Assembly: GCA_014896485.1 (NCBI GenBank)
Contig: JADBKH010000008.1
Span: forward strand, 1 to 64,000
Length of the DNA: 64,000 nt
Source of the DNA: Bacillota bacterium
Lineage (GTDB): Bacteria > Bacillota > Bacilli > Bu12
Reading direction: 5' to 3'
The position numbers and the translations under genes were made by a program. Below are positions 8,497-17,923 of this stretch, piece after piece (the first letter of the stretch is position 1; every line of letters starts with the position of its first letter). A model generated the notes under the pieces. It had not been told where the DNA came from. It did no database searches and saw only the letters and a program-made list of their open reading frames with translations.

Positions 8497-8528
8497 AAAG
8501 GCATCGCGCCTTACGCGATGCCTTTCTA
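8497..8528 (+). terminator. Intrinsic terminator of the oxidase operon
   Basis: A perfect 12-base inverted repeat AAAGGCATCGCG / CGCGATGCCTTT with a 5-base loop and a short T-rich tail (TTTCTATTT), 17 bases after the stop. Confidence 0.85.
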
Positions 8529-8684
8529 TTTGCCACTCTGTTCAGCAGATTGACCGATGGGTCAGGCGCCTCCTCCTACGGCACTGCCCGGAGGAGAAAG
8601 ATCAGTATTACCAACGATGCCAGCCAAAGCGAGCACGATTAGGATCTAATTGTACAAAAGCATTGTCAAAAAGGAGGTTGCACG

Positions 8685-10400
8685 ATGGCCAGCGATGAAT
8701 ACACGCGCTATACCGAGACGTTAGATGCCTTGGGACATACACCATGGACAACCGTGTTACAAGGTGCTGGAAAACGTGTCGTACCCTCACGTGAACATGA
8801 GTGCTCTCAAGCACGGTGCGATCTCTGTTTCGATCGCTTCTGCGATTTTCGCGATGACATGCGTGCTCCTTGCGGACGCACAAAAGCCGACGCGGAAGCG
8901 CTTCTCCTGTTGCGCCGCATGCTGACAGCAGCAGGTACCGCACAACGGGGGGCGCTGCAAACGATCCAGGCGATCTTGCGTTCTCCCCAAAGCATCGAGG
9001 ACACAGCTGTGGCCGATCTGCTCTCCCGGTTGCAGCCACTGACCACCGACGGAAGCCAGGAGAGCACCCTCTCTACGCAGCGACTGCTACGGCATTTGCT
9101 CCATGGCATTCTAGGCGGTTACACGCAAGCAGAGGGACGATCCCTGTGGGCGCGGGTCTTGGCCGACCCAGAGAGTTTAAAGCGTCTGGACAAAACCGGA
9201 ATGGTGCCCAAGCCGGCTTATACCCAGTTGATCGACGCGGCCGCACTCCTTTCACCCGGCAGTCTTCAAGACCGAGACGAGATTCAGCGTGCAGCCACGA
9301 CAACCGCCCTCTCTGCGTTTTTTGATGGCTTGGCTGCCCAGGCCTTTTTGACGGAATTGCTCAAGTTCAAGACGCAAAAAAACACGTCTACACCGGTCGG
9401 ATTGGCCAATCTTCGTCCACAGACCCTCAATTTGGTGCTGTTGACCGACAATGCCGTGCAGGCAGCACGACTCATCGAAACAAGTTGGAAGGCCTCCGAG
9501 ATCTTGGAAAATGCCAACGCCGAACAGATCGCATTCTTCGTTGCCGGAGACAATGGGGCACGTGTTGCAGCCAAACTGGGGATCCCATGGTTGGCCGATT
9601 ACAATGCAGAAGTGCTGCTTCCCTTTGCAACCCTCGTTGACGGCATCATCGTCGGATCAGGGAATCATCCCCCAATGGTCGCCACCGCTGCACAGGTAGC
9701 CGAAGTCCCCTTGCTTCGATTGGGAGTTCCTGCATCTTGTGACGGCTTCTTTGAAGCGACTGTCACCCATTTTTCACGTCGGGTGCGCAGCAACACCCCA
9801 GCGCTTTCGGGTAAAGGAAACTTCGTCTTGCTGCGTGACTACCTGCGCCGTATCGAAGGTCGCCCCCGCATCGCCGCACGCCGGGCCACCGTCGATGCCA
9901 TGCAGCAAGGTACGTTGCGTGGAATTGCGTTGGTCTATGCGGGACAGTTGGATGCCGGCCAACCCGAAGAAATCGAAACGCTCTTGCGCACCCTTCACAC
10001 CCAGGGGCTCTTGCCCATCGTTGCTGGCGCAGTCGCCTTGCCAGCGGCACTGGCCGGATGGACCGACGAGCACGAAGCGACGGCATTGCTCCCCTTCCGC
10101 CGTTCCTTTGAAGATGCAACCGGCGTTCTGCTTCCACCTGTCATCGTCGCCGGCGGCGCAGCAGAACTGGCTGCAACCTATCTGTTACTGCAGCGGGAAC
10201 GCCTGGTGCGCACCGATCCTTTGACGTTGCCAATCCGCTTTTTCCTGCCGACCCAATTCGATCCAGTAGGCGAACTGATGGCCATTTCGTTGGCGGCTTT
10301 GGGCTGTGAAGTCACTGTCGCGCAGCAACCCGACTGGCAAATCCGTCTTTTCGAAACAGGGACAGGCGAGCCTGCACAAATGGAGAAGGGATCGACATGA
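8685..10400 (+). CDS. CO dehydrogenase (CooS)-like protein lacking catalytic C-cluster ligands
   Basis: The 571-residue protein has the order of motifs of Ni-Fe carbon monoxide dehydrogenase. Near the N-terminus, C40, C45, C48, C53 and C63 (CX4CX2CX4CX9C) match the B-cluster region, followed by PCGRTKADAEALLLLRRML.AAGTA, the CooS GVCGA.ADTIVARNLLRM.AAGTA segment. Further on are TGMVPK (GIVPR), AAKLGIP (MRHGIP), GTLRGIALVY (G.IRGIVGVV) and LLPIVAGAV (VLVVTTGC). By eye alignment, every C-cluster ligand is replaced: the His (HGHEP) by TDNA near 254-257, and the cysteines by residues near 290, 327, 420, 449 and 492. Only two other cysteines remain (352, 541). CO oxidation is therefore unlikely; one Fe-S cluster may persist. 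It is coupled by ATGA to a CBS-ACT gene. ATG 8685 follows AAGGAGG. Confidence 0.7.
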   Translation: MASDEYTRYTETLDALGHTPWTTVLQGAGKRVVPSREHECSQARCDLCFDRFCDFRDDMRAPCGRTKADAEALLLLRRMLTAAGTAQRGALQTIQAILRSPQSIEDTAVADLLSRLQPLTTDGSQESTLSTQRLLRHLLHGILGGYTQAEGRSLWARVLADPESLKRLDKTGMVPKPAYTQLIDAAALLSPGSLQDRDEIQRAATTTALSAFFDGLAAQAFLTELLKFKTQKNTSTPVGLANLRPQTLNLVLLTDNAVQAARLIETSWKASEILENANAEQIAFFVAGDNGARVAAKLGIPWLADYNAEVLLPFATLVDGIIVGSGNHPPMVATAAQVAEVPLLRLGVPASCDGFFEATVTHFSRRVRSNTPALSGKGNFVLLRDYLRRIEGRPRIAARRATVDAMQQGTLRGIALVYAGQLDAGQPEEIETLLRTLHTQGLLPIVAGAVALPAALAGWTDEHEATALLPFRRSFEDATGVLLPPVIVAGGAAELAATYLLLQRERLVRTDPLTLPIRFFLPTQFDPVGELMAISLAALGCEVTVAQQPDWQIRLFETGTGEPAQMEKGST

Positions 10401-11050
10401 CCGTCGAAGAGATCATGGCACGCCAACTCATCACCATTTCGCCCCAAGCAACGCTGGATGAAGCCATTCGGCTCATGTATGCACATCGCATCCGCCACTT
10501 GCCGGTAGTAGATGCCCAGGGAGCATTGGCCGGCATCCTTTCTGACCGGGATGTGCGGACCTTCGTCGGAACGGCCTACCTGTCCGGCGAGCATTGTCTG
10601 ACGGAAAACGATCATGTCGCAGATGCCATGACATCGGAGGTGGTGACCACTACGCGTGATACGTTCGTCGAGGAGGCAGCCCGCGTCATGATCGAGCGCC
10701 GCATCGACAGCCTACCTGTTGTCGAAGGAAAACAGCTTCTTGGCCTGATTACCGATACTGACTTGCTGAAAACCCTCATTGCTTGGACGGGCGTCCTGCA
10801 TCCCAGCTCCCGCGTGGAGATCGAGGTGGATGACAGTGCCGCAGCCCTGGCGGAACTCTTGAAGATTTTTGCAGCGCATCGGCTCAATATCGACAGCCTC
10901 ATGATGGTGGGGTATACACCTGCAGGCAAACGCCGATTGGTCGTACGCTTTACGGCGCTCAACTACCTCCCCATTGTTCAAGAAATTCGCACCAAAGGGA
11001 TGAAAGTGTTTACGGGCCTGCCTGGCGAAGAGATCGCCGACACGCCTTAG
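10397..11050 (+). CDS. CBS-domain pair plus ACT-domain protein (AcuB-like)
   Basis: The 217-residue soluble protein has two CBS domains (about residues 3-60, EIMARQLITISPQATLDEA, and 75-135, MTSEVVTTTRDTFVEEAARVM) and a C-terminal ACT-like domain (about 140-213). CBS pairs bind adenine nucleotides and ACT domains bind small ligands; AcuB-like proteins of this layout are regulators of uncertain mechanism. Its ATG overlaps the TGA of the CODH-like gene (ATGA), so it is translated with it and probably controls or reports on that protein. A terminator closes the two-gene unit. No catalytic domain is present. Confidence 0.85.
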   Translation: MTVEEIMARQLITISPQATLDEAIRLMYAHRIRHLPVVDAQGALAGILSDRDVRTFVGTAYLSGEHCLTENDHVADAMTSEVVTTTRDTFVEEAARVMIERRIDSLPVVEGKQLLGLITDTDLLKTLIAWTGVLHPSSRVEIEVDDSAAALAELLKIFAAHRLNIDSLMMVGYTPAGKRRLVVRFTALNYLPIVQEIRTKGMKVFTGLPGEEIADTP

Positions 11051-11080: not shown

Positions 11081-11104
11081 AGCGCCCTTTCCGGCGCTTT
11101 TTTC
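11081..11104 (+). terminator. Intrinsic terminator after the CODH-like/CBS pair
   Basis: AGCGCC (11081-11086), loop CTTTCC, GGCGCT (11093-11098) and a run of six T. It separates this pair from the NrfD operon. The remaining 200 bases to 11311 show no clear promoter or gene. Confidence 0.75.
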
Positions 11105-12296: not shown

Positions 12297-14796
12297 ATGC
12301 CGATCACCGTTGATACACCCGAAGGGAAAGAAACCCTTTACTATAGCGCTTGCACGCCCAACTGCTGGATGAATTGTCGGTTGTATGCCCATGTGCGCGA
12401 CGGCAAATTGGTCCAAACGTCGGCAGCCCCCTTTCCAGACAGCCGCTACAACCGGATTTGCCTACGTGGCCTCTCCCATCCCCAGCGCGTCTACAGCAAG
12501 GAACGCTTGACCAAGCCGTTGCTCCGTGTCGGCAAGCGTGGGGAAAACAAGTGGAAAGAGATCTCCTGGGATGAAGCATTCACCCTCATGGCCAACAAAC
12601 TGTCAGAGATCAAAGAAAAATACGGCAGCCAAGCGGTCCTCTTTGCACCCTTGTCGGGCAACTATGCCATCTTAAATGGATCGCTGGCCGGTGCCACGCA
12701 CCGCATGGCCAACATCTTCGGAGGCACCCTGGCCTGCGATAGCATCGATTTGGCCCTGGCAACCGGAGAATCCCAGGTTGTCGCCAACCTGGGATCGGGG
12801 ATGACTTCCTGGTTTTTGGGGCACCAGCCGGAAGATATCGCCAATGCCAGGACGATCGTGGCATGGGGCACCAATGTAACCGAGTCCCAGGTACACAACT
12901 GGCACTTTTTCGCAGATGCACTGGAGAAGGGCGCCACCCTGATTTGCATCGACCCGCGTTACTCAGAAACCGCAGAAAAGGCGCACTACTGGCTGCGTCC
13001 TCGCCCCGGCTCCGACGCGGCGCTGGCGATGTCGATGATCGATGTGGTCATCGAAGAAAACCTCTATGACCGATCCTATGTGATCGATCACACCGTCGGG
13101 CCCTTCTTGGTGCGCAGTGACAACGGCAAGTTCCTGCGTCGCAACGATCTCGACCCAGATGGCGATGGATCAAACCTCGTCTTTGACGAAAAGAGCCAAT
13201 CTTTCGTCCCTGTGGATACCGGAGAGATTGCGCCCGCGCTCTTTGGCAGCTTTGAAGCCCACTTGGCTGACGGTACGACCATCCAGGTACGCCCAGCCTT
13301 CCAGCTGTTAGCGGATCAAGCGGCAGCCTATACCCCCGAGCAGGCCGAAGCGATCACATCGGTCCGGCCGGACCTGGTTCGCGAGGTAACCCGCATCTAT
13401 GTGCAAAACGGCCCTGCTTTCGTCTATTCCGGCATGGGCATCGACCGCGGGACAATGCTGACATGGTCGGCCGGGCCATCGCGACACCGGGCGTCATCAC
13501 CCACCAGATCGGCAGTTCGGTGCAACACCCTTGCGCTTTGATGGGCGGTCCGCTATTGGCGTCGAGTTTACGCCTGGTATTCTCGATGCGTAATCATGCC
13601 CACGGGCCAAAGCCACTGCACGGCTCAACTTCCTGTTGACCTACGATGCCATTACCAAAGGGAAGATCAAAACCTGGGTCCCCAAAGATCCGAGCAATCC
13701 CATGGCTGGACCGCGCAGTAAAGAGCCCGAAGAGGTCCCTTACACGATCAAGGCGGCCATCTTCTCTTGCGCCAATTTTGCCAGCAACTTCCCCAATCAG
13801 AATCGCATTCTCAACGAGATCTTCGATGAGAAGAACCTCGAGTTTGTCGTCGATCTGGAAATGTTCATGAACGATACGGCGCGTATGTGCGATCTGGTCT
13901 TGCCCATCACCTCCTGGTTTGAGAACGACGACATCGTCGGCGGCATGCATCCATTCATGATGCGCCAGGAGCGGGCCATTGATCCCATTGGAGAATGCAA
14001 GTCCGACTTTGAAATCTATAAGGGACTCTCTGAGAAGTTGGGGCTGAGCCAATATTGGGTGAAGACCCCTCAAGCTTTCATCGATGAGATCATCCACAAT
14101 ATCGCCCAAGCCCTGCAAAATCCGCAGATCGAGGAAGATTTCAAACGGGATGGCGTGGCCCGGCTGATGCCTCCTGCCCTGATCCCGTTACAGGATGGCA
14201 AGTACATGACTCCTTCAGGAAGGGCCGAATTCTATGCGGAAGGGGTCGTTGTCAACTGGCCGGCCATCCAGCCTTCTTTCCGTTTGCCGGTGGACATGGG
14301 CTTTGCCCCCCTGCCACACTTTGAGCCGCCCTATGAGGCTTGGCACGAGAATCCGAAGTTTGCCCAATATCCCTTGGTCTTAAACCAGCGCCACTCGCGT
14401 TTCCGCGTACACACCACTTATTACAACGTACCTGTGCTACGCGAGATGGATCCGGAGCCATTGGTCGAGATGAACGAGCATGAGATGGCCCGGCGCGGTC
14501 TTAGAGACGGCGATATTGTCCGGGTCTACAACGACCGGGGCCAGGCCGTTTTGAAAGTCCGTACCAATAATGCTTACCCCGATCACACGTGCAACATCAA
14601 CAAGGGGTGGCAACGGCACCAGTTTATCGCCGGTGGCTATCAGGAGCTGACAACCGAACATGTCAACTACCGGCATTACAACTGCTCGTTCTTCGATGTG
14701 TTGGTCGAAGTGGAACCCTGGAATCCAGAAAAAGTGCCGCCCCGTTCCATCGAAGAGCACGATGGCAAAGCCCATATCGTGAAAGGAGGCGTTTGA
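12297..14796 (+). pseudogene. Molybdopterin oxidoreductase catalytic subunit with multiple frame breaks
   Basis: This is a DMSO-reductase-superfamily catalytic subunit of about 830 residues in two frames. The first part (12297-13541) has the [4Fe-4S] motif CTPNCWMNC...ICLRG and the cofactor-binding region (SGMTSWFLG, TIVAWGTNVTES, LICIDPRYSETAEKA). The second (from 13594, recognisable from about 13621) has the DLVLPI.SWFE region and C-terminal molybdopterin-binding domain with HSRFRVHTTYY. Frame 1 stops at 13541, while the second frame is closed by TAA 13591-13593, so at least two indels are needed; local matches (NADMVGRAIAT, GVEFTPGILDA, HAHGPKPLHGST) suggest about four. No twin-arginine signal precedes the cluster motif, implying a cytoplasmic enzyme if functional. 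ATG 12297 has GGAGGTG. The substrate cannot be assigned. Confidence 0.85.
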
Positions 14797-17783: not shown

Positions 17784-17797
17784 CGCATCGACCATAT

Positions 17798-17886
17798 GCG
17801 CCGAGGGGTGCCCAATCATTGGGCTGAGAGCGGAATTCCGCAACCCTAGAACCTGATCTGGGTCATACCAGCGGAGGAACGGCAGA
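17798..17886 (+). promoter_or_regulatory. TPP riboswitch (THI element)
   Basis: The conserved aptamer segments are all present in order: GAGGGGTGCCC, GGGCTGAGA, ACCCT, GAACCTGATCTGGGT, ATACCAGCGGAGGAA. It precedes an intrinsic terminator and thiD-thiM-thiE, so thiamine pyrophosphate should cause premature termination. Confidence 0.96.
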
Positions 17887-17890
17887 CCAA

Positions 17891-17923
17891 AGCAGGACCG
17901 TTTCCTACGGTCCTGCTTCTTTT
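17891..17923 (+). terminator. Riboswitch expression-platform terminator
   Basis: AGCAGGACCG / CGGTCCTGCT (10-base perfect arms, 7-base loop) followed by TCTTTT, directly after the TPP aptamer and 20 bases before thiD. Confidence 0.9.

What the first reader, a model, noticed from the sequence alone, without database searches (positions are those of the whole stretch)
8685..11050. CODH-like protein with a retained N-terminal Fe-S site but no C-cluster, coupled to a CBS-ACT protein
The 571-residue protein follows CooS along its length (N-terminal CX4CX2CX4CX9C at 40-63, then GMVPK, LGIP, RGIALVY and VAGA segments), yet the residues aligned by eye with the C-cluster His and the C-cluster Cys are non-ligands. 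It is translated by ATGA overlap with a CBS-CBS-ACT protein, an adenylate/amino-acid sensor layout, and the pair has its own terminator. A catalytically silent CODH relative with one Fe-S cluster could be a redox or gas sensor, or an electron-transfer scaffold. I know of no described function for such a pair. This is my first candidate for an undescribed system.
Basis: partly seen in the sequence, partly recalled or inferred. Interest (0 to 1): 0.82.

Follow-up and report, generated by a model that had tools for sequence, protein, structure and literature searches.

The report
Gutted CO-dehydrogenase relative paired with AcuB
A bacterium that has no CO dehydrogenase carries a far-diverged relative of that enzyme which has lost every ligand of the catalytic metal site but kept one iron-sulphur site, in an operon with its only intact copy of the energy sensor AcuB; this may be a dead enzyme turned regulator, but only one example is known and the function is inferred.

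Summary
Window 8685-10400 encodes a real but very distant relative of Ni,Fe-CO dehydrogenase (CODH): 54 bits against a CODH profile, best of 2000 shuffles 4.8, and 49.5 with all Cys masked. All six C-cluster ligands are replaced, and only two Cys exist after residue 63, so no C-cluster or hybrid cluster can form under any alignment. The four B-cluster cysteines remain; the D-cluster is half lost. The ATGA-coupled CBS-CBS-ACT gene is not of unknown type: it is AcuB, the adenylate/Ap4A-binding inhibitor of the deacetylase AcuC, described in 2026. All 29 class relatives examined have AcuB beside AcuC; here the only intact AcuB sits with the CODH relative, and AcuC stands alone on another contig. 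No orthologue of the CODH relative was found (400 class genomes, 399 phylum genomes, GTDB patterns, plasmids), so conservation of the pair cannot be tested. Best guess: a CODH-scaffold pseudoenzyme whose single [4Fe-4S] cluster gates AcuB. The scaffold identity is well supported; the regulatory mechanism is inferred (about 0.35). Published CODH surveys filter on cluster motifs, so such proteins would have been missed. A separate group of short, part-gutted CODH-like proteins was found in passing.

The parts
8670..8679 (+). Ribosome-binding site (AAAGGAGGTT) of the CODH-like gene
   Evidence: Read from sequence
8685..10400 (+). CODH-scaffold protein, 571 aa, without any C-cluster ligand
8802..8873 (+). 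Cys40 to Cys63: the four B-cluster ligands C45, C48, C53, C63, plus C40 at the place of the first D-cluster Cys (second D-cluster Cys missing)
   Evidence: invariant columns in A1 (C40, C45, C48, C53, C63) and A2 (C45, C48, C53, C63)
10397..10400 (+). ATGA stop-start overlap (translational coupling)
10397..11050 (+). AcuB: CBS-CBS-ACT adenine-nucleotide sensor, 217 aa; keeps R33, H34, R51 and T119; H86 is T and M188 is L
11081..11103 (+). Terminator-like hairpin AGCGCC-loop-GGCGCT followed by TTTTT
   Evidence: weak statistically
8500..8531 (+). Terminator-like hairpin GGCATCGCG-CCTTA-CGCGATGCC-TTTCTATTT that ends the upstream ba3 oxidase operon and separates it from the pair
   Evidence: Read by eye; not called by the scan

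Best explanation
Shown: the 571-residue protein is a far-diverged member of the CODH/HCP superfamily, nearest to CODH, that has lost all catalytic-cluster ligands and kept the four cysteines of the B-cluster; its gene overlaps that of the only intact AcuB of the genome, which keeps the adenine-nucleotide residues. Inferred: it is a pseudoenzyme. It folds as a CODH-like dimer with one [4Fe-4S] B-type cluster per subunit and no catalytic site, and it binds AcuB. The cluster's redox state, or its loss to O2 or NO, alters that binding, so AcuB would report redox state as well as energy charge to its target: the lone AcuC (and through it acetyl-CoA synthetase acetylation), or the CODH-like protein itself in place of AcuC.
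For: CODH homology beyond the Cys motif; no possible C-cluster; B-cluster cysteines kept although the branch is saturated at about 10 changes per column, which suggests selection for the cluster; ATGA coupling and an own operon; AcuB identity (full-length match to GsAcuB 9s4w, E 4.5e-35) with R33/H34/R51 kept; AcuB works by binding and masking a partner protein (PMC13121692, PMC13039410); 29 of 29 class relatives keep AcuB next to AcuC and none has the CODH-like gene there, whereas here AcuC is intact but alone on contig C28; the AcuC-contact residue H86, 23/23 in relatives, is T, and P0002 departs at 9 of 35 conserved columns, more than any relative (maximum 6).
Against: Single genome, no orthologue, so no co-evolution evidence for the pair. 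Own AcuC is also the most divergent of its set (mean identity 0.48, the others 0.50-0.64), so AcuB divergence may just reflect an isolated lineage. No model of the complex could be run. In CODH the B-cluster is buried, so how it would signal is unclear. M188->L is conservative (M or I in most relatives), so AcuC binding may be kept.
Confidence: 0.35

Rival explanations
1. Electron-transfer or structural subunit: the gutted CODH scaffold serves the respiratory genes around it (ba3 oxidase upstream, NrfD/Mo-pterin/Fe-S module downstream), passing electrons through its B-cluster, as may be true of the short CODH-like proteins of other Bacillota.
For: NrfD, Mo-pterin oxidoreductase and a ferredoxin-like Fe-S protein lie 260 bases downstream on the same strand. 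Another part-gutted CODH-like family (473 aa) sits in a conserved cluster with a NAD(P)H-FAD oxidoreductase, Mo-pterin oxidoreductase and Fe-S protein.
Against: The pair is set apart by terminator-like hairpins and is coupled to AcuB, not to the respiratory genes. The D-cluster that would pass electrons out lacks its second Cys. The Mo-pterin gene next door is frame-disrupted. The two gutted CODH groups do not group together (unresolved).
Confidence: 0.18
2. AcuB here simply regulates AcuC as in related genomes; its placement beside the CODH relative is an accident of gene order, and the CODH relative does something unrelated.
For: AcuC and AcsA-like genes are present. AcuB residues for nucleotides are kept and M188->L is conservative. 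The whole lineage is diverged.
Against: ATGA overlap is usually kept for coupled products; AcuB-AcuC linkage is otherwise 29 of 29 but broken here.
Confidence: 0.22
3. The CODH relative is an enzyme with a new active site: the cavity left by the C-cluster binds another cofactor or substrate.
For: 571 residues are retained with predicted Rossmann-like strands. N327-H328 and D255/D289 lie at former ligand places and could bind a metal without sulphur ligands. CooS-V shows that ligand change brings new clusters (PMC9311411).
Against: At most two Cys outside the N-terminus (352, 541), neither at a ligand place; the acid-base Lys aligns with Val528; no metabolic gene in the operon.
Confidence: 0.13
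4. Decaying relic of a horizontally acquired CODH gene under relaxed constraint, or a mis-binned contig.
For: No orthologue in the class, extreme divergence, one genome only.
Against: Full-length open frame with good ribosome-binding site; B-cluster cysteines kept while the rest saturated; GC and GC3 as in neighbours; its coupled partner is the class-typical AcuB, so the contig belongs here.
Confidence: 0.12

Closest known systems
Ni,Fe-CO dehydrogenase, CooS type (TIGR01702; CooS-II 1su6, CODH-IV 6elq)
   Same: Collinear sequence over residues about 60-550; four B-cluster Cys; first D-cluster Cys; predicted helical then Rossmann-like layout
   Different: All six C-cluster ligands and the acid-base Lys lost; second D-cluster Cys lost; about 20% identity; shorter; no CooC, CooF or acetyl-CoA-synthase gene beside it
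CooS-V / clade D CODH of Carboxydothermus hydrogenoformans (PMC9311411)
   Same: CODH scaffold that is not a CODH; no CO chemistry expected
   Different: CooS-V changes one ligand (C295E) and keeps a hybrid Fe-S-O cluster with hydroxylamine activity; here no ligand is left
Hybrid cluster protein (HCP)
   Same: Same superfamily; N-terminal Fe-S cluster
   Different: No significant match to E. coli Hcp or to HCP models; CODH-type Cys spacing; no hybrid-cluster cysteines
AcuB of Bacillus/Geobacillus (9s4w, 9s4v, 9qs7; PMC13121692, PMC13039410)
   Same: CBS-CBS-ACT, full-length match, nucleotide residues R33/H34/R51/T119 kept
   Different: Operon partner is a CODH relative instead of AcuC; H86T, M188L and P190-R191 to Y-L at or near the AcuC-contact loops
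Short CODH-like proteins of other Bacillota (L031/P0003, L044, L043; found here)
   Same: CODH scaffold with N-terminal Cys kept and H261, C295, C333 lost
   Different: Keep the three C-terminal C-cluster Cys and both D-cluster Cys; 457-473 aa; sit with Mo-pterin and Fe-S genes (FNOR too in two of three); no AcuB

Membership tests
Ni,Fe-CODH (functional enzyme) | C-cluster ligands, 1 His and 5 Cys | tested here: not met
   D255, D289, N327, A419/Q421, A449, A492 in their place; only Cys352 and Cys541 after residue 63
Ni,Fe-CODH (functional enzyme) | B-cluster, four Cys | tested here: met
   C45, C48, C53, C63 invariant with CODHs
Ni,Fe-CODH (functional enzyme) | D-cluster, two Cys per subunit | tested here: not met
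   C40 present, second Cys is R44
Ni,Fe-CODH (functional enzyme) | Curated family score TIGR01702 (478) / PF03063 (27) | tested here: not met
   21.9 and 13.9 bits
CODH/HCP superfamily (fold) | Significant sequence or fold similarity over the length | tested here: met
   54 bits against best shuffle 4.8; hhalign 96%; the listed Foldseek hits are all CODHs, E 2e-14, TM 0.45, but partly circular and low-confidence
Hybrid cluster protein | HCP family score and hybrid-cluster Cys | tested here: not met
   No HCP family; no match; Cys census
AcuB | CBS-CBS-ACT architecture with full-length similarity to characterised AcuB | tested here: met
AcuB | Adenine-nucleotide residues R33, H34 (and R51) | tested here: met
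AcuB | AcuC-contact residues H86 and M188 | tested here: inconclusive
   H86 is T (23/23 H in relatives), M188 is L (M or I in most relatives)
AcuB | Gene next to acuC | tested here: not met
   29/29 relatives yes; own acuC on contig C28, no acuB beside it
AcuB | Inhibits AcuC deacetylase | not testable with these tools
   Needs biochemistry

The most novel reading that the evidence does not exclude
A CODH scaffold stripped of its active site has become an Fe-S (redox, O2 or NO) sensor that partners the energy sensor AcuB in place of AcuC, so that one complex integrates redox state and adenylate charge to control protein acetylation or another target: a regulatory pseudoenzyme in the CODH/HCP superfamily, of which I know no described case.
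Probability: 0.22. Interest if true: 0.78.

Novelty: new variant of a known kind. Interest (0 to 1): 0.52.

Why it matters
CODH is among the oldest metalloenzymes, and its known deviants (clade D, CooS-V, groups A-4/A-6) keep most C-cluster ligands; in the 2019 survey the three C-terminal cysteines were highly conserved with a few exceptions (PMC6344411). A protein with none left, in an organism with no other recognisable CODH, shows that the scaffold can be kept for something other than gas chemistry. Surveys filter on cluster motifs (PMC6344411, PMC13240472, PMC11338639), so a hidden class of such proteins may exist. AcuB was only explained in 2026, and a second partner would bear directly on what AcuB does beyond AcuC.

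Tried and rejected
HCP membership: no match. Chance motif: rejected by shuffles and by Cys masking. Orthologue searches: relatives, 399 phylum genomes (only ordinary CODHs plus L002), 400 class genomes, plasmids, GTDB contigs by P0001 patterns (none) and by CODH patterns (four CODHs), viral contigs (none). Linkage of CODH to AcuB elsewhere: 20 CODH loci with several kb of flank on most sides plus four named ones; only L058 has an AcuB, 5.7 kb away in an ordinary acuBC operon behind a transposase-like gene. Single-sequence AlphaFold2 gave pTM 0.22, uninformative. Tree placement of P0001 is unresolved because of branch length.

Full report
WHAT IS THERE. The reported ORFs, motif and overlap are exactly as described. 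The 571-aa protein (P0001) has CX4CX2CX4CX9C at 40-63. A ribosome-binding site precedes it, its stop overlaps the start of the 217-aa CBS-CBS-ACT protein (P0002) as ATGA, and a hairpin with a T-run follows at 11081. The terminator scan is weak on its own (5 found, 3.6 expected). By eye a second hairpin ends the ba3 oxidase operon upstream (8500-8531), so the pair looks like its own transcription unit.

IS IT A CODH RELATIVE? Yes, distantly. Single-sequence searches give TIGR01702 at E 4e-5 and PDB CODH-IV at E 9e-5, with Pfam Prismane below its cut-off. A profile of 21 CODHs scores P0001 at 54.0 bits; the best of 2000 composition-matched shuffles scores 4.8; a copy with every Cys changed to Ser still scores 49.5, so the match does not rest on the Cys motif. 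Most of the signal lies in residues 60-323; the C-terminal 226 residues alone give 8.6 bits (E 2e-5). hhalign aligns residues 100-550 (probability 96%, E 3e-9). AlphaFold2 on an alignment with four CODHs gave mean pLDDT 55, pTM 0.57. The 50 Foldseek hits listed are all CODHs (E 2e-14, TM 0.45), but this is partly circular and the global rmsd is poor; without homologues the model is useless. HCP is not matched. In a tree P0001 has a branch of about 10 changes per column, so its place is unresolved.

THE CLUSTERS. In four alignments the six C-cluster ligands of CooS-II read: H261->D255, C295->D289, C333->N327, C446->A419 or Q421, C476->A449, C526->A492; the acid-base Lys aligns with Val528. CooS-II residue numbers are from my own knowledge of that structure, mapped by motif. 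An alignment-free test agrees: after residue 63 the protein has only Cys352 and Cys541, too few for a C-cluster or a hybrid cluster. The four B-cluster cysteines (C45, C48, C53, C63) are invariant with CODHs, and C40 stands at the first D-cluster Cys, but the second is Arg44. So the expected metal content is one [4Fe-4S] B-type cluster per subunit (inference). In the 2019 survey of 1942 CODHs several groups lack one or two C-cluster ligands, but the three C-terminal cysteines were highly conserved with a few exceptions, and sequences with deletions in the clusters were removed beforehand (PMC6344411); later surveys filtered harder (PMC13240472, PMC11338639). CooS-V, with one ligand changed, is already inactive with CO (PMC9311411). 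A 2026 study suggests redox-sensing or regulatory roles for low-activity CODH clades (PMC13056359).

THE PARTNER. P0002 is AcuB: full-length match to Geobacillus AcuB (9s4w, E 4.5e-35) and to B. subtilis AcuB. AcuB binds AMP, ADP and Ap4A through R33/H34/R51 and, through its ACT domain and a Bateman-domain contact (M188, H86), masks the active site of the deacetylase AcuC; the two papers differ on which nucleotide promotes this (PMC13121692, PMC13039410). P0002 keeps R33, H34, R51 and T119; H86, invariant in 23 relatives, is Thr; M188 is Leu. It departs from 9 of 35 conserved columns, more than any relative. It is the only intact AcuB of the genome.

THE UNUSUAL ARRANGEMENT. In all 29 class relatives with a fetched AcuB locus, AcuC is encoded within 1.5 kb, and none has a P0001-like gene there (an ORF-based count of 24 was low because antisense ORFs masked genes). 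In this genome AcuC, with its catalytic motifs intact, stands alone on contig C28, and AcuB is instead coupled to the CODH relative. The genome has no other CODH. GC and third-position GC of the pair match the neighbours, and P0002 is class-typical, so mis-binning is unlikely.

HOW WIDESPREAD. No orthologue of P0001 was found in 60 relatives, 400 class genomes, 399 phylum genomes, plasmids, viral contigs or GTDB contigs searched with six exact 8-residue patterns. The pattern searches are insensitive to diverged homologues. Among 20 CODH loci and four named ones, none has AcuB coupled to CODH.

MECHANISM. Shown: scaffold, lost catalytic site, kept B-type cysteines, coupling to AcuB, split from AcuC. 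Inferred: P0001 is a pseudoenzyme whose Fe-S cluster reports redox state, O2 or NO, and which binds AcuB. Either it modulates AcuB's hold on AcuC, or it has replaced AcuC as AcuB's client. AcuB already works as a nucleotide-switched protein adaptor, so a second client is the smallest step that explains the operon. I put this at about 0.35 as stated and 0.22 for the stronger sensor-integrator reading. Rivals are an electron-transfer or structural role with the respiratory genes around it, independent function with accidental linkage, a new active site, and decay.

VERDICT. New variant of a known kind; a single example without conservation keeps the score moderate.

Noticed in passing
L031:8192-9613 (-), L044:6691-8109 (+), L043:7427-8800 (+): A separate family of short CODH-like proteins (457-473 aa) in three genomes of one order. 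They lost H261, C295 and C333 but keep the three C-terminal C-cluster Cys and the B/D-cluster Cys. They sit with Mo-pterin oxidoreductase and Fe-S protein genes (plus a FAD-dependent NAD oxidoreductase in L031 and L044) next to a corrinoid methyltransferase set.
   Followed up: partly
window 12297-14796: The DMSO-reductase-type Mo-pterin oxidoreductase downstream is split into two ORFs with no continuous frame across about 13480-13640: a pseudogene or an assembly error.
   Followed up: partly
G000 contig C4:5054-6850 and C8:16644-17219: The best AcsA-like match in the genome carries an in-frame TAA, and a second, partial AcuB-like stretch also has an in-frame TAA.
   Followed up: no
window 17794-17896: TPP riboswitch ahead of apparent thiamine genes; ordinary.
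   Followed up: no
L058:9126-18863: A genome with CODH and, 5.7 kb downstream behind a transposase-like gene, an ordinary acuB-acuC pair; no coupling.
   Followed up: yes
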